Positions 11,793 through 25,073 of a stretch of 64,000 nucleotides of DNA are shown here, in pieces. The position numbers were made by a program, and so were the translations under genes. Under the pieces are notes generated by a model that searched no databases, was not told the DNA's origin, and worked only from the letters and a program-made list of their open reading frames with translations. Each line of letters opens with the position of its first letter. Positions within the stretch are counted from its first letter, which is position 1. This stretch comes from Candidatus Nitronereus thalassa (GTDB taxonomy: Bacteria; Nitrospirota; Nitrospiria; Nitrospirales; UBA8639), in assembly GCF_032191465.1 (NCBI RefSeq), contig NZ_JAQOUE010000001.1, positions 2,046,001-2,110,000 of the forward strand. Direction: 5' to 3'.

Positions 11793-11866
11793 TTTCAAAA
11801 TGGGAATGTTGCACGTTCAGCATAAGGTTGCGTGATCATTTATACTCAATTATTATCGATTTCATA

Positions 11867-11896
11867 TATAAATATGTATAAATTGGTATAAATAGA
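11867..11896 (+). repeat. Three tandem 10-bp TATAAAT repeats at the ATPase gene start
   Basis: TATAAATATG, TATAAATTGG and TATAAATAGA follow each other with exact 10-bp spacing and end two bases before the ATG at 11899. One repeat per helical turn places the same face toward a bound protein, so an operator or a set of overlapping -10-like boxes is plausible. No Shine-Dalgarno sequence fits between them and the start codon. Confidence 0.5.
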
Positions 11897-11898
11897 CT

Positions 11899-13083
11899 AT
11901 GGACCCTATAAAAAACCCGTTTTCCCCCGGTGCGGGGTCTCCACCGCCGGAACTTGTGGGACGCGACCCAATTTTAGAGCAGGCCAGGATTCTTCTCGGA
12001 CGGGTGCGGCAACGGCGTCCCGAAAAAAGCATGTTGCTCACGGGCCTTCGTGGAGTAGGCAAAACGGTTCTGCTCAATGAGATCAAACGAATGGCGGATG
12101 ATGATGGCTACCGCACCATCTTTATCGAGGCCCATGAAGGCAAAGCCTTAGGTCCGTTGATTGCCCCCTACTTGCGGACCCTACTCTATGACCTAAATCG
12201 AATGGCGGGGACCGGAGACAAGGTCAAACGCGGATTGGCTGTTCTTCGGAGTTTTATCGGCGCTCTCAAACTTACGATGGGTGATATCACTATCGGATTG
12301 GATATCGAACCAGAAAAAGGTGCTGCAGATAGTGGTGACTTGGAAGTTGATCTGCCTAACCTCTTCATTGCCATAGGTGAAGCTGCCGAGGATCGAAAAA
12401 TCCCCGTGGCCATCTTCATTGATGAAATTCAATATTTCAACAAAAAAGAATTGGGTGCATTGATAATGGGGATGCACAAAATTCAACAGCATCAACTCCC
12501 ATTGGTGTTACTGGGGGCGGGCTTACCTATTCTTCCTGGATTGGCCGGTGAGTCGAAATCCTATGCCGAAAGGCTATTTAGCTTTCCCAATATTGGGGCA
12601 TTATCGATAGACGATACGGCCAAGGCATTACAAGATCCTGCGCAAGAAGCCGGGATAGCCTTTGACCCTTCCGCGTTAACCGAGGTGTATCGCTTGACGA
12701 AGGGTTATCCGTATTTTCTTCAGGAATGGGGATATGTTGCTTGGAATATTGCAACTTCCAGCCCCATTACCTTGCAGGTGATTCAAGATGCCACATTAAC
12801 GGTCATCCCACGCCTCGACGAAAATTTTTTTCGTGTTCGTTATGAGCGCCTCACCCCAAGTGAAAAAAACTTTCTGAGGGCCATGGCTGAACTTGGACAA
12901 GATGCCCATCGCACGGGAGATATCGCGGATATCTTGGGCGTAAAGGTTACCAGTCTCGGTCCCGTTCGAGCCAAACTGATTAATAAAGGAATGATCTATA
13001 GTCCTGCACATGGTGATCTGGCATTTACCGTGCCGCTATTTAGTGACTTCATGATTCGGACGATCCCTAAATTTCAAGGGTAG
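11899..13083 (+). CDS. AAA-type P-loop ATPase (Orc/Cdc6- or archaeal-ATPase-like)
   Basis: 394 residues. After NPFSPGAGSPPPELVGRDP, typical of this ATPase group, Walker A is GLRGVGKT (49-56) and Walker B is VAIFIDEIQYF (D175/E176). A sensor-like LPLVLLGAG follows near residue 212. The C-terminal third is a winged-helix-like region (LTPSEKNFLRAMAELGQDAH, then DIADILGVKVTSLGPVRAKL), which would bind DNA. Such single-gene ATPases occur on mobile elements and beside toxin-antitoxin-like genes; the exact role is unknown. A BrnA-like antitoxin gene follows 60 bases downstream. The pair lies between the photolyase gene and a duplicate of its 3' end, so it looks like an inserted module. Confidence 0.8.
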   Translation: MDPIKNPFSPGAGSPPPELVGRDPILEQARILLGRVRQRRPEKSMLLTGLRGVGKTVLLNEIKRMADDDGYRTIFIEAHEGKALGPLIAPYLRTLLYDLNRMAGTGDKVKRGLAVLRSFIGALKLTMGDITIGLDIEPEKGAADSGDLEVDLPNLFIAIGEAAEDRKIPVAIFIDEIQYFNKKELGALIMGMHKIQQHQLPLVLLGAGLPILPGLAGESKSYAERLFSFPNIGALSIDDTAKALQDPAQEAGIAFDPSALTEVYRLTKGYPYFLQEWGYVAWNIATSSPITLQVIQDATLTVIPRLDENFFRVRYERLTPSEKNFLRAMAELGQDAHRTGDIADILGVKVTSLGPVRAKLINKGMIYSPAHGDLAFTVPLFSDFMIRTIPKFQG

Positions 13084-13144
13084 TGGGGAAGATGAACTTC
13101 CGGGCGAATCCTCCTAGCGGGTTACACCATTAAGAGAACGGAAC

Positions 13145-13438
13145 ATGGCAAAGAAACCATCCGTATCATCGGTACGAGGCAGACCAGCCGCAAAGAACGC
13201 GCGGCCTACTCCAGACCACAAGCTTGATTTTTCAGATATTCCGGAATCCACGGATGACGAACTCAAAAAAGCACGTCGTGTGGGACGACCCAAGAGTAAA
13301 ACGGGGAAACAACTCATTGCCATTCGCTTGTCGCCAAAACTATTAGAGACTATCCGACGAATGGCGGCCAAGCAAAAGAAACCCTACCAGACGTTGATCC
13401 ATGAATTATTGGGAAAGGCAGCCTCACGCGCTGCTTGA
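13145..13438 (+). CDS. BrnA/CopG-like antitoxin, orphan
   Basis: 97 residues. The N-terminal half is basic and disordered (KKPSVSSVRGRPAAKNARPT), then comes DFSDIPESTDDELKKARRVGRP, typical of BrnA antitoxins, and a C-terminal ribbon-helix-helix segment (LIAIRLSPKLLETIRRMAAK, YQTLIHELLG). BrnA normally represses its own operon and blocks the BrnT ribonuclease encoded just upstream. No BrnT-like gene is visible here; the upstream neighbour is the AAA ATPase. Either the antitoxin is an orphan or the two form an unusual pair. The photolyase 3' remnant starts 4 bases after the stop codon. Confidence 0.72.
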   Translation: MAKKPSVSSVRGRPAAKNARPTPDHKLDFSDIPESTDDELKKARRVGRPKSKTGKQLIAIRLSPKLLETIRRMAAKQKKPYQTLIHELLGKAASRAA

Positions 13439-13442
13439 GGCT

Positions 13443-13657
13443 AAGGCCAAAAATTTGATGCGGACGGAGAATACGTTCGACGGTTTGTCCCCGAATTAAA
13501 AAAGATGCCCAAGAAATACCTGCACAACCCTTGGGAAGCGCCGGAAAAGGACTTAGCTGAAGCGGGTGTGAAACTGGGGAAAGATTATCCCCTACCAATC
13601 GTCAAACTCGGTGAATCGCGAGAACGAGCTTTAGAAGCCTTTGCTAGCCTTCGCTAG
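13443..13657 (+). pseudogene. Second copy of the photolyase 3' end (remnant)
   Basis: From AAGGCCAAAA at 13443 the sequence encodes 70 residues, GQKFDADGEYVRRFVPELKK through ALEAFASLR and stop, colinear without gaps with the last 70 residues of the photolyase at 10362; about 55 of the 70 are identical by eye. It has no start codon or upstream domains. The copies are too different for a recent tandem duplication. A foreign element that brought its own version of the gene end and displaced the old one, as integrating islands often do, explains this better. Confidence 0.85.
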
Positions 13658-13668
13658 CACTAAAATAA

Positions 13669-13744
13669 ATGTCGCTCGCTAAGTTGGCAGAGCAGCTAAC
13701 TCTTCATCAGCGGGCCACAGGTTCGATCCCTGTACGACCCACCA
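13669..13744 (+). tRNA. Degenerate tRNA-Lys (CUU)-like sequence, probably a pseudogene
   Basis: 76 bases with encoded CCA. The T arm (ACAGG, TTCGATC, CCTGT) is perfect and the anticodon loop CTCTTCA gives CUU (Lys). The acceptor 5' strand fails to pair at positions 1, 2 and 7 with the 3' strand (ACGACCC), the D stem has an A-G mismatch at its fourth pair, the anticodon stem has an A-C mismatch, and position 37 is C where a purine is expected. An intact 3' half with an eroded 5' half is what an integration site often leaves. It lies 11 bases after the photolyase remnant. Confidence 0.55.
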
Positions 13745-14088
13745 TCTTTTTCAAGCACTTACGCACACCATAGATTGACCCCACCAGAAGAAAAAACAGA
13801 TTTAGACCTGTTTCTGGGATTTGGGCTTGCCTTTGTCCTATAAATTATCCTGAAATTAAGTTCCTATAAGCACCTCACAAGGTTAATAAATCGCTGCTCT
13901 TGTAAACTTGCCCTCATCTTAATCCGTTTCCTTCCCCTACTGTCCCTTCTGGCAATTCATCCCAGTTGAAAACTTGAGTTTTTTGCCGATAGGGTTACGA
14001 TTCATCCACACCAGACGACAAGAAATTGTATGGTAAAGTCGTGAGATGAAAAATTAGGATTCGCAAGGTAAGGTAGTCACCCAACAAC
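13745..14088. other. Gene-free stretch between the tRNA-like sequence and the AddB-like gene
   Basis: 344 bases without a supportable gene. A weak AAACAG/CTGTTT hairpin lies near 13797-13816. I see no duplicated tRNA 3' end in it and no recognisable coding remnant. Confidence 0.4.
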
Positions 14089-16779
14089 ATGTTAAAACAA
14101 GCCCAGCTTTTCATTCGCCTTACCCCAGGAGTACTTCGACCTCAGTGGGGGCATGGTTATGTAAATGAGTTTCGCGGTGGTCCCGAAACCCTGTTGCGAT
14201 GGCTCGAAACTCAGTTAGGGCTTCCGGTTCCCTCGGTTCATACTGCGGATCGGATTACCGAGTACGCCGCGGCGCTTGACACCGTCGTAGACTCGGTAAT
14301 TACTGCCAGTATGAAGACAGATCGTTGGGGGACGGCTTCCGATCTGCTTTCTCGCCGAGATGAACTGCTGCTGGCTGGATGGAATGAGACCAACTCCGAT
14401 GCCTTGCCCGACTTAGTTCGCGATCTTGCTCAGGCTGCAGAAGGCCGAACGTTTGTGTTTCTCAGCGAAGCGGCGCGCTTGCAACGGGTGCTTGATGCCC
14501 TGAGTGTAGGGCAAGTGCTGCCTCCTCATCGTTGTTTCCTGCATGATTCCCTGGATGTGTGGCCGGTAGTTTGGCGCACAGTACTTGGAAAGCTAGATGT
14601 TGTTAATCAGCCGGAACACGCGCCTCATGGTCCCCACGCTTCTGCCCTGTACACAGCACAAAACGTTGTACGTGGCGCCGACAGCACAAGTATCGAGCAG
14701 GACTCGACCTTTCGCTATGTTCACACACGCAGCGAGTCCGCTGCCCTTGAGTTGGTTGCCGCTATCTTGGCGGGTGTTCCGAACAAGTTGGCAAGCACCG
14801 TCATTTGTTGTGAAGACGACGACTTGGCACTGCGTCTTGATGCAAGCCTCAGCCGAATCGGTCTGCCGACTACTGGGGCGTCGGCCTGGTCGCGGGCACA
14901 CCCGGTGCTACAAATTTTGCCGCTTAGCTTGGCCCTTTGTTGGGAACCGGTTGATCCGCAAGCACTGCTTGATTTTCTGACGCTACCCTTCCTGCCACTT
15001 CCCAGAAAGGCCGCATCCCGATTGGCCAATGCACTGGCCCAAGAACCCGGCTTGGGAAGCAGTCAGTGGGATGTAGCCGTAAATGAACTTTGCGGCGAAG
15101 AGCATGATCCTGGGGGCAAGGTTCGAGAACGACTCGATTCCTGGCTGCTCTGTGACCGAACCTCAAGAGGAAGCGAAATCTCATCACGCCTCATACGCTC
15201 ACGCTGTGGAATGGTTGCCCAATGGGCTTCCGGGCAAGCGACATTGTTTGCAAAGGGTGATCAAGCAGATCCCAGATTGATAAACGCATTGCAGATTGCG
15301 GCCAGGCAAGCGTCATTGCTAGGTGAGTTGGCCGAAAACCAGGGGATGGCCTTGTCAGAGCCCCAATTGGCACGCTTGCTGGAAGAAGCTCTGGCAAACG
15401 GAGTGGAAACGACCTCGTGCATCGAAGCCGAGGATGGCCCCATCCGTGTGCGATCTCTCTCCGAGATTGACGGACCGTGTGATTGGCTCATTTGGCTCGG
15501 TCTAGGGACGGCAGATGCAGCCCGATGCCGTTGGTCCTCCGATCAGCTTCGTAAACTTCGTGAAGCAGGGATTGAGGTTGACGATGGAAGCAACAATCTT
15601 TCTTCGCTACGTTTCGCTGAAGCTCGCGGTTATGGCTTCGTCAAGGAAGCATTTCTCGCCGTGCTCCTGCCGCAGGATCTGGTGAAACGTTGGCACCCAA
15701 TCTGGCTCGCGATTCGTGCATGGCTACGAGATAAAGACATTGAGCAGCCGCCCGTCTTTGAAGATCTGGTCGCGGCCGGTGAGGTGACCTCACTCTCCCC
15801 ATTCATATTTGAGTGTCAGGACGCTGACATTGAGCCTTCCCAGAAACCACGCCCTCTTTGGGCCATCCCGGATAACCTGCTTTGTGATCGCGAAACGGTC
15901 TCAGCTACCGAGTTACAGGATCGACTCGGCTGTCCGTTGAAATGGACTTTCAACTACCAAGCGAAAATTCGTCCAAGCCCTAACGCCGAACTACCCAACG
16001 ATTTCCAGCTCAAAGGAACGTTCTGTCACCGCATTCTTGAGCGCGTGTTCGGTGGGGGTGGTGACTTGCCGACAGTCGACGACGCGGTTGCCCGCGTTAT
16101 CGCCACCTATGAAGAGCGACTTCCTCTTGATGCCGCTCCGCTTGCTCTACCCGACAAGTACTTCGAACGTCAACGACTTCGCAGTGAACTGGAAAATGCG
16201 ACGCGTGTGCTCATCGGCACATTGGCCAGTGGCGGGTATCGAATTGTTGGAATCGAAGTAGAGCTCTCAGGAGAGGCATTTGGAAAGTCACTGAAGGGTT
16301 TGATTGATTGCGTTACAAAACGAGACAACGGCGATGAGGCGATCATCGATTTCAAGTATAGCGGCCGGTCTAAGTATCATTCACTCATCGAAGATGGGAA
16401 GGCGGTCCAGCTTGCCACATATGCCTATGGACGATCGATGGTACACGGCGCATTTCCTGCTGTTGCCTATCTGGTGCTCTCCGACGGTCTAATCTATTCA
16501 CCATCGGAAAGCCCGCTTAACGGCGATGACAACCGGTCCCTTATCGACGGACCCGCGATTCAAACGGTATGGCAAAAGTTTTCCGCCGCCATCACCAGGG
16601 CCGATGACTGGTTGACGTCCGATGCTCCCGTTCCGGCTCGTCCGCTGCAAGATCCCACTCAGTGGCCTGAAGGCATAGACAAACTTGTGCTGGATCCGAG
16701 AATCAGGGCGAATACGATACAGGATGTCTGTAGGTACTGCCATTACAAGACTCTTTGCGGGATTCAGGAAACCTCATGA
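14089..16779 (+). CDS. AddB-like PD-(D/E)XK nuclease subunit with Fe-S-type cysteines
   Basis: 896 residues. The C-terminal part is a RecB/AddB-type nuclease: LKGTFCHRILERVF (motif His), AIIDFKYSG (D and K of the active site), and AVQLATYAYG (QxxxY motif). A cysteine before the nuclease (LGCPLKWTF) and a cluster at the end (CRYCHYKTLCG) match the four-cysteine Fe-S arrangement of AddB. The first 600 residues look like an inactivated UvrD-type helicase scaffold without an evident Walker A, as in AddB. The next gene overlaps by ATGA, so the two proteins should form one complex that unwinds and degrades DNA ends for recombination or defence. B. subtilis AddB is about 1,160 residues, so this is a shorter version. 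Confidence 0.8.
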   Translation: MLKQAQLFIRLTPGVLRPQWGHGYVNEFRGGPETLLRWLETQLGLPVPSVHTADRITEYAAALDTVVDSVITASMKTDRWGTASDLLSRRDELLLAGWNETNSDALPDLVRDLAQAAEGRTFVFLSEAARLQRVLDALSVGQVLPPHRCFLHDSLDVWPVVWRTVLGKLDVVNQPEHAPHGPHASALYTAQNVVRGADSTSIEQDSTFRYVHTRSESAALELVAAILAGVPNKLASTVICCEDDDLALRLDASLSRIGLPTTGASAWSRAHPVLQILPLSLALCWEPVDPQALLDFLTLPFLPLPRKAASRLANALAQEPGLGSSQWDVAVNELCGEEHDPGGKVRERLDSWLLCDRTSRGSEISSRLIRSRCGMVAQWASGQATLFAKGDQADPRLINALQIAARQASLLGELAENQGMALSEPQLARLLEEALANGVETTSCIEAEDGPIRVRSLSEIDGPCDWLIWLGLGTADAARCRWSSDQLRKLREAGIEVDDGSNNLSSLRFAEARGYGFVKEAFLAVLLPQDLVKRWHPIWLAIRAWLRDKDIEQPPVFEDLVAAGEVTSLSPFIFECQDADIEPSQKPRPLWAIPDNLLCDRETVSATELQDRLGCPLKWTFNYQAKIRPSPNAELPNDFQLKGTFCHRILERVFGGGGDLPTVDDAVARVIATYEERLPLDAAPLALPDKYFERQRLRSELENATRVLIGTLASGGYRIVGIEVELSGEAFGKSLKGLIDCVTKRDNGDEAIIDFKYSGRSKYHSLIEDGKAVQLATYAYGRSMVHGAFPAVAYLVLSDGLIYSPSESPLNGDDNRSLIDGPAIQTVWQKFSAAITRADDWLTSDAPVPARPLQDPTQWPEGIDKLVLDPRIRANTIQDVCRYCHYKTLCGIQETS

Positions 16780-19700
16780 TGCACACACTCGAACTGGTTC
16801 GCGCAGGTGCAGGATCAGGCAAGACGACAGATCTCTGCCAGACGGTCGTCCATGCTGTCGCAGGCGGATTGGATCCTGCACGTATCCTTGCCACGACCTT
16901 CACGAAAAAAGCTGCTGCTGAGCTCAAAGGCCGAATCCAAACACAATTGTTCGGTGCAACCGACGGAAGTGCAACGACACACCGTCATGCCGATCGGCTT
17001 GAGTTGGCGGCCATTGGTACCGTGCACAGTGTGGCGCACCAGGTCTTATCCCGCTATGCCATCGAAATGGGATTGTCACCACGTCTCGAAGTCGTCACGG
17101 AAACCGCAAGCGAACGAGCGCTTAGCTACCTGCTTGGTGCCATTCCCCTCTCAGCCTGGCAACCGCTTGCCGATTGTGGGGAACGACTGGGGATCAATGA
17201 CTTGCATCGTCGCATCCTGGCCTTGCTCGCCGCCAAGCGAGGAAACCGCATCAACGACGCCGACTTTACCACCCAAATGGCTTCCAGTGCCGATCGCGTG
17301 TGTGAGCTGCTTTCCCCATCCGGTGTGGCCGCAGTCGAGACGCCGATCAGCCAGTTGTATGACCTCGCTGACGATGCACTAACGGACATTGATGCCTTGA
17401 CCGACGATACACAACTCACAAACAAAGGACGACAAAAACTTCGCCAACTCAAGTCAAAGCAGATTTCGCTCTGGGGCAGCTATCTGCAGGCGATCAGAAT
17501 AACGGCAGGCAAGAGGTCAGGTGCCGACGGAATGCTCAATGCATTGAGAACCCATGCCTCTCAGGTCCGTCAGAATCCTCGACTCCATGCTGATATTCGA
17601 CAGTTTTCGTCCCTCTTGACTGCCGAGACGATTCGTCTCGATTCTCAATACAAAGCCTACAAAGCTGAACGTGGATTGGTGGACTTCACCGACCTGGAAA
17701 TTCTCTTTCTCAAACTTCTTGAGGACGAAAGCCTTTCTGCTCGTTTAGGTGAAGATTTCGATCTTGTCCTGGTTGATGAATTTCAAGATACGAACCCGCT
17801 GCAACTCGCTATTTTCCGCAGACTGCAATGTGTCTCACTTCGCAGTCGTTGGGTCGGTGACCCGAAACAGGCCATTTACGGGTTCCGCGACACCGATCCG
17901 GCGCTCGTCAATGAAATTTGGCAAAATGCTTCTGAGGCTACCCGCACCGAACTTCCCAACAACCACAGAAGCCAACGCGGACTGGTCCAGTTTGTCGGCC
18001 ATCTATTCGGTCCCATATTCGGAGATGATGCGAGGCAGACGCCGCAGAAAGCGGCCTTGCCGCGGGGAGTTGAACGATGGGTATTTGACACACAGAACCA
18101 AACGGACGATGCGATTGCGCTCGCCTGTGGAATAGCAAACCTGCATGCGGAAGGAATACGATTTGGCGATATCGTAATTCTAGAACGAACAAACCGACTA
18201 CTCCCGCCCATCGCCACGGCTTTTGACACCTTGGGGATTCCCTATCTGCTCGAAAGTCCCGGTCTGCTGTCCACTCGCGAAGGGGCACTAATTCTGGCGG
18301 GTCTGCGGCTGGTTGCTGATCGAAGAGACTCCCTTGCTGCTGCAACGGTGCTTCACCTTCTGAGCGATCCTAAGCAAGACACCCCCGATTGGATCACAGA
18401 GCGTCTGCAAGCTCTTCGTGATACGAATGCCGGCGGCGGGTCGGAAACGCCACATGCTTTTCACCTTCCTTGGGAGGGTGACGCGCGTTTTTCACGCATT
18501 GAAAACATTAATCGCTTACTCCTGTCACCGACACTTGTTGTTCAACAGGTAATCGAGGCCTTGGATTTACCCACTTACGTTCAAAAATGGGGGGATCCCG
18601 CACAGCGTTGCTCGAATCTCGACTCCATTTTGCGACATGCTCGTGAATATGAGGAGATCGCATTCGACAGCGGCCAAGCAGCGACGCTTAGGGGTTTCAT
18701 TCTCTACCTCGAAGAACTTGCAGGCGATAAGCTCGATCTTCGTTACCCCCCGCAAGGGCATGATGCCGTGACGTTGATGACATACCATTCATCCAAAGGG
18801 CTGGAATGGCCAGTCGTCGTGCTCAGCGGATTAAACTCCGACCGACCGCCCAACATGTGGTCACCGGTTGTCACCGGTGGTGGGCAAAGCGACGCAGATC
18901 CGCTAGAAGGACGAACCTTGGAATCATGGACATGGCCTTTTGGACAGACCGAGGGCCAATTCGGTGGATTGCGCACCGGCAGCGGTCTCGAAGACGATGC
19001 GCTCACCTCCCCCGAGGGACAAGCACGCACGTGTCGCGAAACCGAGGAAAATCTGCGATTGCTTTATGTGGGGTGTACGCGTGCCAAACACAAACTCGTG
19101 TTTGCGCATCGTGCGGGAACGTATGCGTGGCTAGCACAACTCTCCGCAGTAGATTCGTTGCTCGACTGCAACCTCGGAGAAGGTGAACACGAACTGAATG
19201 GAATTGATACGTCATTCGTTTTGCGCCACTTGAACACTAACAGGGTTGATGACTGCCGAATTCCGGCAAGACAAAAAGAACGGTGGCGCTCATTGACTGG
19301 AAACCCGAATCCGCCGGGCTTCTCTCCCCGTTTTCACGCTCCCAGTCAAACCTCTGCAGAGCCAGGCGACGTGGCGTTTCACAATGAGGAACTCCCAGGT
19401 CCGTCCTATTTCCCATCGGGAGCTGATGAAGATCACTACGCAACAATCGGAGAAGCGGTGCATAGTTATCTTGCAGCTCTTCCGTCGATGCAGTCGCTGA
19501 GCGATGTCGAGAAAGAAGGCGTGGCAGAGCGTTGCCTTGCTGCGTTTTCTGTAACCGGCATCCTTTCGCCGTCGATTCTTGTCTCTTCGGGTAACCGTTT
19601 CTCTGAATGGGTTGAATCGAAATATCCCGGTGCTCAATGGCTCACAGAGCTTTCTGTGACGGCTCCGCGATCAGCTGGGGGGCAATGGAATGGGGCACTA

Positions 19701-19907
19701 GATTTGTTACTTGAACTTACCGATGGGAAAGTCGTCATCATTGACCACAAGAGTGCACCGATTCGGCGAGAGCACTGCGCAGCAAAAGCCACAACTTTTT
19801 CGGGACAATTGTTGGCGTATAAGGAAATGATCAACAGTACAGAGCAAGTAGTTGATTCTTATTGGATTCATTTTCCTCTTGCGGGAGTCATGGTCAAACT
19901 TGTTTAG
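16776..19907 (+). CDS. AddA-like UvrD/RecB helicase-nuclease
   Basis: 1043 residues from ATG 16776, which overlaps the preceding stop as ATGA. Superfamily 1 helicase motifs are complete: I RAGAGSGKTTDL (residues 9-20), Ia ATTFTKKAAAELKGRI, II LVLVDEFQDTNPLQL, III RWVGDPKQAIYGFRD, IV ELPNNHRSQ, V MTYHSSKGLEWPVVV, VI LLYVGCTRAKHKL. The C-terminus is a second PD-(D/E)XK nuclease: GEAVHSYLAAL, WNGALDLLLELTDGKVVIID followed by HK, and GQLLAYKEM. With the AddB-like partner this gives an AddAB-type machine with two nuclease sites. It could be the housekeeping enzyme for double-strand break repair; its place next to an insertion site and a restriction-like helicase makes a defence role possible too. 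Confidence 0.85.
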   Translation: MMHTLELVRAGAGSGKTTDLCQTVVHAVAGGLDPARILATTFTKKAAAELKGRIQTQLFGATDGSATTHRHADRLELAAIGTVHSVAHQVLSRYAIEMGLSPRLEVVTETASERALSYLLGAIPLSAWQPLADCGERLGINDLHRRILALLAAKRGNRINDADFTTQMASSADRVCELLSPSGVAAVETPISQLYDLADDALTDIDALTDDTQLTNKGRQKLRQLKSKQISLWGSYLQAIRITAGKRSGADGMLNALRTHASQVRQNPRLHADIRQFSSLLTAETIRLDSQYKAYKAERGLVDFTDLEILFLKLLEDESLSARLGEDFDLVLVDEFQDTNPLQLAIFRRLQCVSLRSRWVGDPKQAIYGFRDTDPALVNEIWQNASEATRTELPNNHRSQRGLVQFVGHLFGPIFGDDARQTPQKAALPRGVERWVFDTQNQTDDAIALACGIANLHAEGIRFGDIVILERTNRLLPPIATAFDTLGIPYLLESPGLLSTREGALILAGLRLVADRRDSLAAATVLHLLSDPKQDTPDWITERLQALRDTNAGGGSETPHAFHLPWEGDARFSRIENINRLLLSPTLVVQQVIEALDLPTYVQKWGDPAQRCSNLDSILRHAREYEEIAFDSGQAATLRGFILYLEELAGDKLDLRYPPQGHDAVTLMTYHSSKGLEWPVVVLSGLNSDRPPNMWSPVVTGGGQSDADPLEGRTLESWTWPFGQTEGQFGGLRTGSGLEDDALTSPEGQARTCRETEENLRLLYVGCTRAKHKLVFAHRAGTYAWLAQLSAVDSLLDCNLGEGEHELNGIDTSFVLRHLNTNRVDDCRIPARQKERWRSLTGNPNPPGFSPRFHAPSQTSAEPGDVAFHNEELPGPSYFPSGADEDHYATIGEAVHSYLAALPSMQSLSDVEKEGVAERCLAAFSVTGILSPSILVSSGNRFSEWVESKYPGAQWLTELSVTAPRSAGGQWNGALDLLLELTDGKVVIIDHKSAPIRREHCAAKATTFSGQLLAYKEMINSTEQVVDSYWIHFPLAGVMVKLV

Positions 19908-20340
19908 ATCACCTTATACACATTCGTTGTACACTGTTATTTTGTTGTCGAAAGTCCACGAATACGAATTTTAAACGAGCATCTTAGCCAAATAGGGTAT
20001 TATCCAAGAAGCTGTTCAAAAGCAGATAGTGCAAGCAATGGCCCACACGTGGGAGTTTTCCAAGTATGATACCGGCCTGAGTACTCCCTGTGCCAAGAAT
20101 GTTGCGAAGGAGTGGTCTGCATTGTAGCGTGTCGGGGGGGAGTATTTGAAGAGAAGTAGAGCGACGTTTGAGGGGTAGCATCGGCGTTAATGGGCCGCCC
20201 TCCCAATATTATCCAAGGCTTGAGAAGGAAGGAGAAGGTCCATAAGGCAATTCAAAAAAATCGGATGCCATTCTTGGGCTGCCTCCAACCTCAGGACAGA
20301 ATCATTTTTAAACCGAGTCTGGAAAATTATCTAAATTCTA
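19908..20340. other. Gene-free stretch between the nuclease-helicase pair and the HA-repeat helicase
   Basis: 433 bases in which I support no gene. TATTATCCAAG occurs twice (about 19998 and 20209), and a CCCACACGTGGG palindrome is present near 20042. Short minus-strand frames here match nothing I recognise. A promoter for the helicase at 20341 is expected, but I could not fix one. Confidence 0.4.
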
Positions 20341-23300
20341 ATGTACCCCTACTTGTCACAATTTGATTGGTCCATTATTCATTGTTGGAATGATTTAGAG
20401 GACAAGATCCGAGTACTTTCAACCGTCCAAGCACGGGGGGAAGCCTTTGAGGAATTTTGTCACGCCTTTTTTACCCATCAAAAAGACTTTTACCAAGCGA
20501 GAAATATCTGGCGTTTCAAGGAAATACCTGAAAACATTTTAAACCAAATAGGGTTAAATACCTCTCAAGATCGTGGCATAGATGGGTTGCTACAGCAACA
20601 TGATGGAACTTTTACAGCTTACCAAGCTAAATTTCGAAGTGATCGAGCAGACACCCCATCACAGCATGAGTTGTCAACATTTTATATGATAAGTGATAGG
20701 GTGAATTTCCGTCTTGTTGTCTCTAATGTCCAAAACTTACCTTCAATAGCCACCGAGAGAAAAGATCATGGCCATATTCTTGTAGATACACTGCTTGAAC
20801 TTTCGCCAGACTTTTTTCAATGCCTCAAAGACCACGTTTGTTCCGATTATTTACACCATGAACCTCCGCCCGTTGCAAAACCTTTTCAAATTGAAGCCCT
20901 TGATGCAATTCTTCAGGGGTTTAGGGTGTCTTCCAGAGGCCAAGCGATTTTGGCTTGTGGAGCCGGAAAAACACTTCTTGGGAAATGGGTAGTTGACCGA
21001 CTCGGCAGTAAACGAATTTTAGTAATGTTTCCGAGTTTGGCCCTAGTTCGTCAAACTATGGGGGAATGGTATAGAGCTCAATCCGGAACTTTTCGCTACA
21101 TATGCATTTGCAGCGATCCAACAGTCGACGTTTATCGGGAGGAAGATGAGTGGGAAACACAACCCTCTGAACTCGATGTCAGGGTCTCCACCAATGCACA
21201 GGACCTTGTGGTTTTTTTTAGTAAAAATGAAACCGTACCTCAAGTGGTCTTTTCGACGTATCAGAGTGGTTCTGTCATTGTAGAAGCTCTAAAAAATCCT
21301 GCACTTGAAAATTTCCACTTTGACCTTGTGATTTGTGATGAGGCTCATCGGGTAGCTGGAACGGCTGGGCGAGCTTTTTCATCTGTACTTGATGACAATT
21401 TGGTGAGGGCAAAATACCGCCTTTTCATGACTGCTACTCCTAAGATTTTATCTCCACGGCTTTCAGAAAAAGATTCCACGGATAGTAACTTAATTTGTTC
21501 CATGGATGACCATGCCATGTTTGGCCCTGTCTTTTATCGGTTTCCCTTTAGCGAGGCAATACATCAAGGAGTTATTTGTGACTATAGGGTAGTGGTTATA
21601 GGTGTTAGTGAGGAAGAGATTCTAGATTTAATTCGTGAGGGAGGTACGATTCAGATAGAAGATTCTGAGACATGGAAAGCAGAAGTGTTGGCCCAAAGAA
21701 TAGCTCTGTGCAAAGCCATTGCTAACTATGGAATTCAAAAAATATTCACTTTTCATAACCGAGTCTCTGCTGCAGCACATTTTGTGAATGTGAACACACC
21801 CGATAGTTTCCCTTCTGTGTTGAAAAAATTTAGCCCTAATCTCCAATATATGGCTAGCCACATAGAAGGCAAAATGTCAGCAGGAATACGAAATAATATT
21901 CTCCGAACGTTTTCTTTAAGTACGCGGGGTGTAGTTTCTAATGCACGGTGTCTTGGAGAAGGTGTAAATGTTCCCATAGTAGATGGAATATTTTTTGCGG
22001 AACCCAGAAAGTCAGTAATTGATATTGTTCAGGCAACGGGGCGTGCGCTTCGCAAGGTTCCTGGCAAGGATCGTGCCTATATCATTATTCCAGTTCTTGT
22101 TAAAAAAGGAGAAGAAGTCGACCAAATTTTGGAAGAAAGTAAGTTTGATACCGTCTGGCAAGTGCTTTCGGCTATGACAAGTCAAGATGAACGCTTAGAT
22201 GCCACTATTAAAGAGGTTCGGATCAAACAAGGAGAAGGGGCCATTCCCAGATTAGGGGATTCAGGGGGATCTTTTCATTCGGAGTTTATTGATACCCAAA
22301 CAATTCTCATGGGGTTTCCTAAGCATATCCCTTTTTCAGTATACCAAAAGGCTTTTAGCCTTGAAGCGATAGAGAAATTGGGAGAGAGATGGCACCTGCG
22401 TTTTGGCGCCCTTAAAGATTATGTGAAACATCATGGTAAAGAACCAAGCAAAGAGGATGAATTTGAAGGTTTTAAAATTGGAGCTTGGCTTCAAGCCCAG
22501 CGTACGGCATACAGGAAGAAAAAACTTCCCGAAGATCGGGCTAATCTCCTAAAGGAACTTGATATTGATTTGGCCGCCTCCTATGACCTCCAACAAAGCT
22601 GGGAAGAACATTTAGAGGGGTGCAAGAAGTTTTTAAAAGAAGAAGGGCGTCTGCCATCTCAAGGCGAGGAATTTTGGGTGAGTGAAGAAAGAACAGCATT
22701 AACAATTAAAGAAAAAATGAAAAACGAGTATTCATCATTGGGGCCAGGATTTTTACCTGGTCAGGTTTGGGAAGGAACAAAACTCCTTAAGGTAGGTAAT
22801 TGGCTGGGGCATCAACGTCGTTTTTACAGACAAGGCAAGCTCTCCAATGAAAGAATTGAAAAAATGGAAAAGGAATTGAAGCTTGTCTGGGATCCTACGA
22901 GAGAAAAATGGGAAAGAAATTTTGCAGCATATAAAGCTTTCGTAGAAAAAACAGGGTTGCAACCAGATAGGCGGACTAAATTTCGAGGAGTTGCAATTGG
23001 CAACTGGACCAGTAATAACGTTCGAAAGGCTTACAAGGAAGGTAAATTATCTGACGAGCAAATCAAAAATTTTGAGTCTCTTGGAATGGTTTGGAGCCAA
23101 AAAAAGAGCACATCTCCAAAAACCAAAAAGCCAAGATTCCCAGGTCAACACTCTGAAGATATTTTAGACCAAGGGTACAGTTTTCTACAAGATACTAGTT
23201 TATGGATAGATCTCTATGCTAAATGCAAAGAATATATAAAAGAATTTAATTCCCCTCCACTGCCTGGCCGTATTTACTTTGGATTTCCAATAGGCTCTTG

Positions 23301-23403
23301 GTTAGAATCTCAATGTTATTTATATGAATTGGGAAAACTTCCCGATTACGAAAAGGAAAAAATTTCCCTTTTAAAAAATCTTATTAATCTGGAAAAAAGG
23401 TAA
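20341..23403 (+). CDS. Restriction-type DEAH helicase: Mrr-like nuclease, SF2 helicase and four helicase-associated repeats
   Basis: 1020 residues in three parts. Residues 30-150 are a PD-(D/E)XK-like domain: RGEAFEEFC, RGIDGLL (D81) and YQAKFR (Q95/K97), the QxK form seen in Mrr-like enzymes. Residues 180-620 are a superfamily 2 helicase: ACGAGKTLLG (Walker A, 205 on), ICDEAHR (DEAH 333-336), FMTATP (364-367), and VQATGRALRKV (motif VI). From about 665 come four helicase-associated repeats, each W...Y..F/Y..E.G..P, then IG.WL..QR..Y..GKL. The coding sequence is visibly A+T-richer than both neighbours, and no methylase is present. I infer a transferred single-gene defence or restriction factor; the target is unknown. 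Confidence 0.85.
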   Translation: MYPYLSQFDWSIIHCWNDLEDKIRVLSTVQARGEAFEEFCHAFFTHQKDFYQARNIWRFKEIPENILNQIGLNTSQDRGIDGLLQQHDGTFTAYQAKFRSDRADTPSQHELSTFYMISDRVNFRLVVSNVQNLPSIATERKDHGHILVDTLLELSPDFFQCLKDHVCSDYLHHEPPPVAKPFQIEALDAILQGFRVSSRGQAILACGAGKTLLGKWVVDRLGSKRILVMFPSLALVRQTMGEWYRAQSGTFRYICICSDPTVDVYREEDEWETQPSELDVRVSTNAQDLVVFFSKNETVPQVVFSTYQSGSVIVEALKNPALENFHFDLVICDEAHRVAGTAGRAFSSVLDDNLVRAKYRLFMTATPKILSPRLSEKDSTDSNLICSMDDHAMFGPVFYRFPFSEAIHQGVICDYRVVVIGVSEEEILDLIREGGTIQIEDSETWKAEVLAQRIALCKAIANYGIQKIFTFHNRVSAAAHFVNVNTPDSFPSVLKKFSPNLQYMASHIEGKMSAGIRNNILRTFSLSTRGVVSNARCLGEGVNVPIVDGIFFAEPRKSVIDIVQATGRALRKVPGKDRAYIIIPVLVKKGEEVDQILEESKFDTVWQVLSAMTSQDERLDATIKEVRIKQGEGAIPRLGDSGGSFHSEFIDTQTILMGFPKHIPFSVYQKAFSLEAIEKLGERWHLRFGALKDYVKHHGKEPSKEDEFEGFKIGAWLQAQRTAYRKKKLPEDRANLLKELDIDLAASYDLQQSWEEHLEGCKKFLKEEGRLPSQGEEFWVSEERTALTIKEKMKNEYSSLGPGFLPGQVWEGTKLLKVGNWLGHQRRFYRQGKLSNERIEKMEKELKLVWDPTREKWERNFAAYKAFVEKTGLQPDRRTKFRGVAIGNWTSNNVRKAYKEGKLSDEQIKNFESLGMVWSQKKSTSPKTKKPRFPGQHSEDILDQGYSFLQDTSLWIDLYAKCKEYIKEFNSPPLPGRIYFGFPIGSWLESQCYLYELGKLPDYEKEKISLLKNLINLEKR

Positions 23404-23865
23404 GCCTAAGAAATAAGCCAATACCCATAACCGACCACAAACTTATCAAATAAAAGAATCAGAAACTGTTGTATCTGAAACTCTGGGGAAAAGGCCAAAT
23501 TTTCCGCGGTGATTTCACCTCGCTAGTGCAACCGTGGCTTGATTGTAGGTGAATTCAAAAAGAAAATGCGGTTAATTCTATTTATTAATGCATTATGTGA
23601 CTTTATTCTCATTCCAAGAAATTGGGTTAGATCCTGCGGAACCATATTTTATTGACCACTAAATTAATCTCAACTAGCAACTCAGCAGAAACAGGTTCCG
23701 CGACAGGTTTCCTCAAGAACCCACAATCGCAACTCATTAGGAGTTTTGATTTCTTTCTTCGAACTCACTGATTCCGTATTAGCTGGTTTACTCAGCCAGG
23801 CTCCCTCTCAACAAATCAGTCACAGTCCCTGCCATAGGCCCCATCCACCGCGATCTGACTTTTTT

Positions 23866-23879
23866 TGTCTCATGAGACA
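23866..23879. promoter_or_regulatory. Perfect 14-bp palindrome, candidate sigma-54 activator site
   Basis: TGTCTCATGAGACA is identical to its reverse complement. It lies about 165 bp upstream of the -24/-12 core at 24044. A partial second half-site (GGGACA) follows near 23909. The spaced version of the same arms occurs at 3720, upstream of the first PEP-CTERM promoter. Confidence 0.55.
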
Positions 23880-24043
23880 GGAAAGTGTGTCACGGAATAT
23901 CTTCTCGTGGGACAGATCCTTCAAAAATCCTTTGTTTTCGGCTCATTTTATTTTTGTTTTTCCCATAATAAAAATTTTTAAATTATAATATTATCAATAG
24001 CTTATATAGATATTGACTCGCCACATATTCGCTTTTCTCCTCT

Positions 24044-24059
24044 TGGCATTATCTATGCA
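24044..24059 (+). promoter_or_regulatory. Sigma-54-like promoter upstream of the 114-residue membrane protein gene
   Basis: TGGCATTATCTATGCA keeps the essential GG and GC pairs with correct spacing and differs from TGGCACG-N4-TTGCW at three less critical positions. It is 100 bp before the start codon at 24160, with the palindrome at 23866 as a possible enhancer. Confidence 0.5.
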
Positions 24060-24159
24060 TTTATCTTTGGTTGAGGAAGATTTCGAAAAAATATGTCTCA
24101 TTCTTCTTGATTTTTTAGGGCTGGAAAGGTGCAAACCGCCACTGGAGGAGGACCCGGCC

Positions 24160-24504
24160 ATGGGAACCACTCACCATATCATCCGTACCACGCTCTTAGG
24201 AATCGCTCTGGCGATTCTGACCATTCCCTTGTTCCATGCCCCACTCACCATCCCGCACTTTCCGGAAAGTGAATCGTACGGTCCACTGGAGTTTTCCGAC
24301 GTTCGGATCGTCACTCTGGATCTCTCGGTTCCGTATTCCGATCCCGACCTCATCCACCGGATGACCATCCACGCTGATGATTCTTTCATGTGGTGCTTTC
24401 AGGGATCATCGCAAGAACCTTTCTGCCAGGACGAACTCTGGGATGAGAGGCATGCCCAGCTATGGAAACATCTGATGACGCTCCAGGGCATCCCCTCGCT
24501 ATGA
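24160..24504 (+). CDS. Membrane-anchored protein of unknown function
   Basis: 114 residues from ATG 24160, which has a strong GGAGGAGGA ribosome site; the frame opens at a TTG at 24013, but that would translate through the promoter. Residues 8-32 form a hydrophobic anchor or signal (IIRTTLLGIALAILTIPLF). The rest is acidic and soluble, probably periplasmic, with two cysteines (MWCFQGSSQEPFCQDE) that could form a disulfide. No family was recognised. The DCC-family gene follows 21 bases later and may be cotranscribed, which would pair a possible disulfide substrate with a thiol-redox enzyme. Confidence 0.55.
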   Translation: MGTTHHIIRTTLLGIALAILTIPLFHAPLTIPHFPESESYGPLEFSDVRIVTLDLSVPYSDPDLIHRMTIHADDSFMWCFQGSSQEPFCQDELWDERHAQLWKHLMTLQGIPSL

Positions 24505-24525
24505 CGTGATGGGAGGCACGGTCAA

Positions 24526-24912
24526 TTGATAGATCAATCTCTGGAAACTCAAGTGAAGCCCTTTCCGCTGACGGTGTATTTTGACGGCGAATGCCCCATT
24601 TGCCGTCGAGAGATCGATTTGATGAAAATTTTCAATCGACAGGGACGCCTACACTTCATTGATTTTTCGACCTCGTCCTACCGCCAAGACGATCATGGGC
24701 TCAGCCCCTGTGACTTGGGAAGTGTGATTCATGCCCGCTGGGCCAATGGAATCATCATCACCGGCGTGGATGTGTTCCGAGCAATGTGGGAGGCCATTGG
24801 TTTAGGATTTTTTTCCCGTCTGAGCCGCCGGCCCACGATCAACACTTTGTTGGTCAAGGCCTATCATTGGTTCGCTAAAAACCGATTGTGGCTCACCGGG
24901 AAAGCTCGTTAA
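24526..24912 (+). CDS. DCC-family thiol-disulfide oxidoreductase-like protein (DUF393)
   Basis: 128 residues from TTG 24526, with GGGAGG 9 bases upstream. The signature VYFDGECPICRREIDLM gives the CxxC pair near residues 24-27 in a thioredoxin-like fold; the family is named for the aspartate and two cysteines. Later blocks (IHARWANGIIITGVDVFRAM) are also typical. Such proteins are predicted small redox enzymes without a settled substrate. The C-terminus (WFAKNRLWLTGKAR) is echoed by the degraded fragment at 6137, so the genome once had a second copy. Confidence 0.85.
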   Translation: MIDQSLETQVKPFPLTVYFDGECPICRREIDLMKIFNRQGRLHFIDFSTSSYRQDDHGLSPCDLGSVIHARWANGIIITGVDVFRAMWEAIGLGFFSRLSRRPTINTLLVKAYHWFAKNRLWLTGKAR

Positions 24913-25073
24913 CTGTCAGTATTTTTTTTCTGGGCTTTACTTTATATGTTGACGATTATGAATGAACTAGCGACACATTCTATATTGCATGTTGCCTTTC
25001 GGGGGAAATCCATCCCCGTAAAATTTTTTGGTTCGCACGCCTTTTTTCGTGGACTGTTCCATGGAGGGAGAAG

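What the first reader, a model, noticed from the sequence alone, without database searches (positions are those of the whole stretch)
20341..23403. Single-gene restriction-like helicase with four helicase-associated repeats
The protein combines a GID...QxK Mrr-like nuclease, an SF2 DEAH helicase and four HA repeats that probably read DNA or RNA. It lacks any methylase or specificity partner and is A+T-richer than its neighbours. It may be a self-contained anti-phage protein in which the HA repeats decide the target.
Basis: partly seen in the sequence, partly recalled or inferred. Interest (0 to 1): 0.62.

Follow-up and report, generated by a model that had tools for sequence, protein, structure and literature searches.

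The report
Type-ISP-like nuclease-helicase with reader repeats
A single bacterial protein joins the DNA-cutting and DNA-pulling engine of a known class of restriction enzyme to an array of small repeats with strongly varying surfaces that probably decide what it attacks, in place of the usual methylase and recognition domain.

Summary
Confirmed: window 20341-23403 encodes one intact 1020-aa protein: Mrr-like nuclease, SF2 DEAH motor and four HA repeats. The engine is that of Type ISP restriction enzymes (LlaBIII: phmmer 3.6e-66; VIA Z 27.2 over 596 residues, next outside Type ISP 17.7). D81 and K97 align with LlaBIII D78 and K94. The methylase-recognition half is absent; an HA array stands there. 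In a core tree the methylase-bearing enzymes form one clade, HA-bearing relatives lie outside it. Nuclease-bearing relatives have 2-13 HA repeats; six proteins with 83-92% identical cores have 4-8 counted repeats, and their 34 repeats show 32 different helix-2 surface sets. Nearly the same surface positions vary most in other lineages. The gene is patchy, AT-rich and in a variable segment. The sister clade adjoins defence or candidate defence genes. Best reading: a methylase-less, Type-ISP-like restriction enzyme with an HA target reader. Defence activity and DNA reading are untested.

The parts
20341..23403 (+). whole gene: Mrr-like nuclease + SF2 DEAH motor + four HA repeats, 1020 aa
20341..20835 (+). 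N-terminal Mrr-like PD-(D/E)xK nuclease, residues 1-165; E37, G79-I-D81, Q95-A-K97
   Evidence: invariant in A1; aligned with LlaBIII E38, D78, K94
20863..22233 (+). two RecA-like lobes of the SF2 motor, residues 175-631 (GKT with K210, DEAH 333-336, TATP 364-367, QATGRA 564-569)
22234..22380 (+). partly helical linker, residues 632-680, in the place where Type ISP enzymes have the coupler
22390..22563 (+). HA repeat 1, residues 684-741
22600..22893 (+). HA repeat 2, residues 754-851, split by an insertion at about 798-816
   Evidence: low-confidence stretch 796-811 in the model
22909..23094 (+). HA repeat 3, residues 857-918
23203..23361 (+). HA repeat 4, residues 955-1007
11793..25073 (.). 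variable segment between the photolyase and multicopper-oxidase genes that holds the gene; about 0.4 kb in relative G252, about 7.5 kb of other genes in G300

Best explanation
It is a single-chain, ATP-driven restriction-type nuclease. Its engine is that of Type ISP restriction-modification enzymes, but the methylase and recognition domain are replaced by an array of HA repeats. Proposed working: the HA array binds a target in incoming DNA, the SF2 motor then fires and pulls DNA, and the Mrr nuclease cuts when movement is blocked or two enzymes meet. Shown: domain make-up, kinship with Type ISP, conserved catalytic residues, lack of the methylase half, varying HA number and hypervariable HA positions. 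Inferred: DNA as ligand, the order of activation, defence as the purpose. With no methylase in the protein, the host must be spared another way, for example by lack of targets or by the need for a feature of invading DNA.
For: LlaBIII is the best match by sequence (3.6e-66), Foldseek (1.3e-35) and VIA (Z 27.2, 596 residues, 28% identity; best entry outside Type ISP 17.7). D81 = D78. PADLOC's Type IIG REase-MTase model matches residues 16-629 only (8.5e-109). Core tree: all 53 methylase-type rows lie in one starred clade of 57 rows; all HA rows lie outside, five of them in its sister group. HA counts 2-13. Cores 83-92% identical against 4-8 repeats, and 32 distinct helix-2 sets among 34 repeats. 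Hypervariable columns chosen on one part of the repeats have pN/pS 1.24 and 0.84 in the other part against 0.30 and 0.27 elsewhere; 0 of 2000 random column sets reach it. Rank agreement with 13 proteins of other lineages: Spearman 0.76. L022 has PDC-S19 2 bp away, L024 DUF4238 3 bp away, L034 DUF4238 34 bp away; a DUF4238 protein protects against T7 (passage in PMC9122126). Patchy spread and a variable segment.
Against: No activity data. The window's own neighbours are not known defence genes, only an AddA/AddB-like pair of which the AddA-like gene is rare (1 of 40 family genomes). PADLOC hits are not much commoner around HA loci than in control ORFs. The closest relative, L021, lies beside housekeeping genes. 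pN/pS near 1 may be relaxed constraint. The window protein's own repeats are diverged and irregular. HA arrays also occur on helicases of phages and plasmids.
Confidence: 0.55

Rival explanations
1. It is a mobile-element or DNA-processing helicase, akin to TtrA of Streptomyces linear replicons, that acts in DNA transfer, replication or end processing rather than in defence.
For: The motor+HA part matches 739 plasmid records, 386 of Streptomyces and 115 of Pseudomonas (some of the 739 are Type ISP enzymes). The inward genes near the ends of two linear Streptomyces plasmids, L197 and L198, have 4 HA repeats and no nuclease motif. TtrA is required for SLP2 conjugation (passage in PMC8743542). 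That these two genes are ttrA is my inference from place and direction.
Against: The window gene has an intact nuclease site, lies in mid-contig (2.07 of 3.36 Mb), and no transfer genes were seen in the window genes scanned. Its nearest kin by tree (L021, L184, L022, L024, L034) all have the nuclease region.
Confidence: 0.2
2. It is a defence protein, but the HA array senses a phage protein, not nucleic acid.
For: Varying repeat number and hypervariable positions fit any fast-evolving binding partner. No known DNA-reading superhelix was seen among the 50 best Foldseek rows for an HA array.
Against: The HA region of the window protein carries net charge +11 against -9 and -4 for nuclease and motor. 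HA follows a nucleic-acid motor in the relatives, though these were found by their motor.
Confidence: 0.13
3. It is a Type IV-like enzyme that attacks modified DNA or a DNA structure, with HA as a non-specific DNA grip.
For: No methylase in the protein; no DNA methylase among the 25 commonest of 96 Pfam families of 87 neighbour ORFs (the other 71 were not shown).
Against: A non-specific grip does not readily explain why the same positions vary so much while the scaffold is kept.
Confidence: 0.12

Closest known systems
Type ISP restriction-modification enzymes LlaBIII (4xqk) and LlaGI (5ffj)
   Same: Mrr nuclease with aligned catalytic residues (LlaBIII), SF2 motor, single chain
   Different: no methylase, no recognition domain; HA array at that place; no self-protection by methylation within the protein
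Nuclease-less HA helicases of phages, Pseudomonas megaplasmids and Streptomyces linear plasmids
   Same: SF2 motor followed by HA repeats, 3-6 in most
   Different: no Mrr nuclease; other replicon contexts
HA domain structure 2kta (Bacteroides)
   Same: single HA fold, Foldseek probability 0.97, rmsd 2.6 over 64 columns, but E 2.2; weak sequence match
   Different: one isolated domain, no function given
SauUSI (7clg), Type IV ATP-dependent endonuclease
   Same: SF2 motor in a single-chain restriction enzyme
   Different: much weaker match; other nuclease type (recalled)

Membership tests
Type ISP restriction-modification enzyme | N-terminal Mrr-family nuclease with active-site residues | tested here: met
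Type ISP restriction-modification enzyme | SF2 helicase-like ATPase | tested here: met
Type ISP restriction-modification enzyme | all-helical coupler | tested here: inconclusive
   VIA alignment runs to residue 734 / LlaBIII 721, helices between 603 and 680; not tested alone
Type ISP restriction-modification enzyme | gamma-class N6-adenine methylase | tested here: not met
   no methylase family in Pfam; no [ND]PP[YFW] seen in the translation
Type ISP restriction-modification enzyme | C-terminal target recognition domain | tested here: not met
   C-terminus is HA repeats; PADLOC match ends at 629
Type ISP restriction-modification enzyme | translocation-driven cleavage | not testable with these tools
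   biochemistry needed
TtrA-type telomere helicase | place near the end of a linear replicon | tested here: not met
   2.07 Mb into a 3.36-Mb contig; topology of the contig not known
TtrA-type telomere helicase | SF2 motor with HA repeats | tested here: met
   that the compared genes are ttrA is inferred
Anti-phage defence system | protects against phage or plasmid | not testable with these tools
   bench test needed
Anti-phage defence system | lies among defence genes more than expected | tested here: inconclusive
   clear for L022, L024, L034, L040; tally of 87 against 76 control ORFs only modestly different

The most novel reading that the evidence does not exclude
HA repeats are modular target readers: each repeat shows a variable helix-2 face (HA positions 33, 36, 37, 40, with 41, 44 and loop 22-23) that reads part of a DNA sequence, and repeat number and surface are reshuffled to retarget a methylase-free Type-ISP-like nuclease. 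Type ISP enzymes would then be one branch of a wider family of nuclease-motors with exchangeable C-terminal readers.
Probability: 0.22. Interest if true: 0.85.

Novelty: new variant of a known kind. Interest (0 to 1): 0.55.

Why it matters
If right, a common but little-studied repeat (HA, PF03457) is a target-reading module, and restriction by a Type-ISP-like motor can work without self-methylation. That makes two questions testable: what the HA domain binds, and how a methylase-free restriction enzyme spares its host. Even if only partly right, it places the Type ISP enzymes within a wider family of nuclease-motors with different C-terminal modules.

Tried and rejected
tRNA-Lys at 13669-13744 as an integration site: no repeat of 12 bases or more of the tRNA and the following 46 bases elsewhere in the window. 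A constant partner gene: among neighbours none recurs widely except between related phages; DUF4238, near two HA loci, is the commonest Pfam family by ORF count. HA array against PDB: no hit at E 0.001; 2kta is the one true-looking match; that no DNA-reading superhelix appeared is no evidence of absence. Papers: PF03457 gives one unrelated plant paper; 'helicase associated domain' with defence terms gave none; other searches listed no paper on this architecture as far as titles and abstract starts show. Entropy-chosen columns are circular, so repeats the test with split sets. pN/pS uses simple counting with high pS (0.41-0.64). Rows dropped before the tree: 127 proteins to 111, fragments and near-copies. 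L182 was not used further because it is the contig of L043 by length. The tree label MT rests on a [ND]PP[YFW] motif plus length over 1300, not on a family search. The tree is by the quick method, rooted at the midpoint, with several long branches.

Full report
What is there. The window holds an intact gene at 20341-23403 for 1020 residues, the only copy and the only HA gene of a 4.0-Mb genome in two contigs. Pfam gives HA repeats, ResIII, Helicase_C and DEAD. A profile built here from relatives finds four HA repeats, the second cut by an insertion, and the AlphaFold2 model agrees (23 sequences, mean pLDDT 80, pTM 0.68). The nuclease signature E37, G79-I-D81, Q95-A-K97 is kept; E37, G79, D81, Q95 and K97 are invariant in eight aligned proteins. 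Gene GC is 41% against 49% for the window, and GC3 is 34%.

What it is related to. By sequence the best solved relative is the Type ISP enzyme LlaBIII (3.6e-66), then LlaGI. In the alignment D81 falls on LlaBIII D78 and K97 on K94 (residue numbers counted by me from the printed alignment). PMC4872093 names a D78A mutant of LlaGI in a section on nuclease-dead forms (passages seen). Foldseek puts LlaBIII first at 1.3e-35 and VIA gives Z 27.2, 3.3 A over 596 residues, against 17.7 for the best entry outside Type ISP. PADLOC's combined restriction-methylase model matches residues 16-629 only. So the engine is shared and the second half is not: Type ISP has coupler, methylase and recognition domain (abstract of PMC4666363; passages of PMC4872093), this protein has HA repeats.

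Family tree. Of 131 loci examined, 121 gave an ORF matching the first 640 residues. On a core tree of 111 rows, all 53 rows labelled methylase-type fall in one starred clade of 57; HA rows with a nuclease (22) and without (12) fall outside it, five of them in its sister group of seven together with two rows of other make-up. The window protein joins L021 and L184 (support 100), then L022, L024, L034 and the viral contig L114 (98). The root is at the midpoint, so the direction of the swap is not shown; the simplest reading is that the methylase-bearing form is one branch of a wider nuclease-motor family.

HA repeats vary in number and surface. Nuclease-bearing HA proteins have 2 to 13 HA repeats. 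L025, L026, L027 and L043 have cores 83.5-92% identical but 8, 4, 6 and 4 repeats; L180 (core 91% to L025) has 6 before a stop and L181, which is split, has 6. One of these records is titled Nitrospira sp. (L043). Among their 34 repeats the six positions of the helix-2 face and turn form 32 different sets, and between L025 and L180 only one repeat pair is nearly identical (0.94), the other best pairs 0.67-0.82. Columns chosen as hypervariable on one part of the repeats have pN/pS 1.24 and 0.84 in the other part, against 0.30 and 0.27 for the other columns; 0 of 2000 random sets of 12 columns reach this either way. In 13 proteins of other lineages nearly the same positions are most variable (Spearman 0.76; position 30 is an exception, variable there and not here). 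Positions 33, 36, 37 and 40 are spaced as one face of helix 2 of the model. Helix-3 positions are better kept, so exposure alone seems not to explain it; accessibility was not computed. In the window's own subfamily L021 and L184 share 522 of 659 core residues but 237 of 366 in the HA part. This is what a target-reading repeat should look like, but ratios near 1 do not separate diversifying selection from relaxed constraint, and the ligand could be DNA, RNA or protein.

Where it sits. The protein matches in 13 of 295 genomes of the phylum sample at E 1e-20. In relative G252 the photolyase and multicopper-oxidase genes are about 0.4 kb apart; in the window 13.3 kb lie between them, with an AAA ATPase, tRNA-Lys, an AddB/AddA-like pair, the HA gene and a DCC1-like gene; in G300 about 7.5 kb of genes for other things (two CMAS-type methylases, lipocalin, an amine oxidase and more) fill the place. 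The AddA-like neighbour matches in 1 of 40 family genomes, its own, at E 1e-60. So the gene lies in a variable segment. The window beyond 40 kb carries housekeeping genes in the ten scanned.

Link to defence. In the sister clade L022 has a PDC-S19 candidate defence gene 2 bp behind the HA gene, L024 a DUF4238 gene 3 bp behind, and L034 a DUF4238 gene 34 bp behind, in two ORFs. A single DUF4238 protein gives strong resistance to T7 (passage of PMC9122126). L040 has a PDC-S04 gene, and a Rhodococcus plasmid relative with 8 HA repeats has a NACHT gene about 5.6 kb away. Against this, a tally of 87 neighbour ORFs around 25 loci (74 PADLOC families at 1e-10, many from one UvrD-like protein) compared with 76 control ORFs (17 families, most of them look-alikes of housekeeping genes in my judgement) shows only a modest excess of dedicated defence families; I make no significance claim. 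L021, the closest relative with L184, lies beside carbamoyl-phosphate synthase and a SAM hydroxide adenosyltransferase gene.

The other life of HA. HA helicases without nuclease occur in phage contigs (counts), Pseudomonas megaplasmids (6 repeats in L196) and as an inward gene at the end of linear Streptomyces plasmids (4 repeats each in L197 and L198). [quoted passage not shown] HA therefore serves motors of both attackers and hosts, which suits a general reader of nucleic acid but weakens HA as a sign of defence.

Verdict. It is not a Type ISP member, since methylase and recognition domain are absent, but it probably works like one after target binding.

Noticed in passing
window 14089-19907: AddB-like PD-(D/E)xK protein and AddA/UvrD-like helicase, overlapping genes; the AddA-like one is found in 1 of 40 genomes of the family at E 1e-60, so a rare nuclease-helicase pair.
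   Followed up: partly
window 13669-13744: tRNA-Lys(ctt) inside the variable segment; no tRNA was found in the 20-kb stretches around the same genes in four relatives.
   Followed up: partly
window 24526-24912: The DCC1-like gene lies before the multicopper oxidase here, but after the genes matching 32738 and 34215 in G252 and G300: local gene order has been rearranged.
   Followed up: no
L180 5914-9027, L181 5479-8649, L028 10035-12269: HA nuclease genes broken by a stop, split in two, or lacking part of motor lobe 1: decay, or draft-assembly error.
   Followed up: no
L029 4467-7781: A nuclease-motor of the same family with an integrase-repeat-like stretch (INT_rpt) instead of HA repeats; possibly a third kind of C-terminal module.
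   Followed up: no
L115-L143 (viral contigs): Nuclease-less HA helicases as recurrent genes of viral contigs, with shared neighbours between several of them.
   Followed up: no
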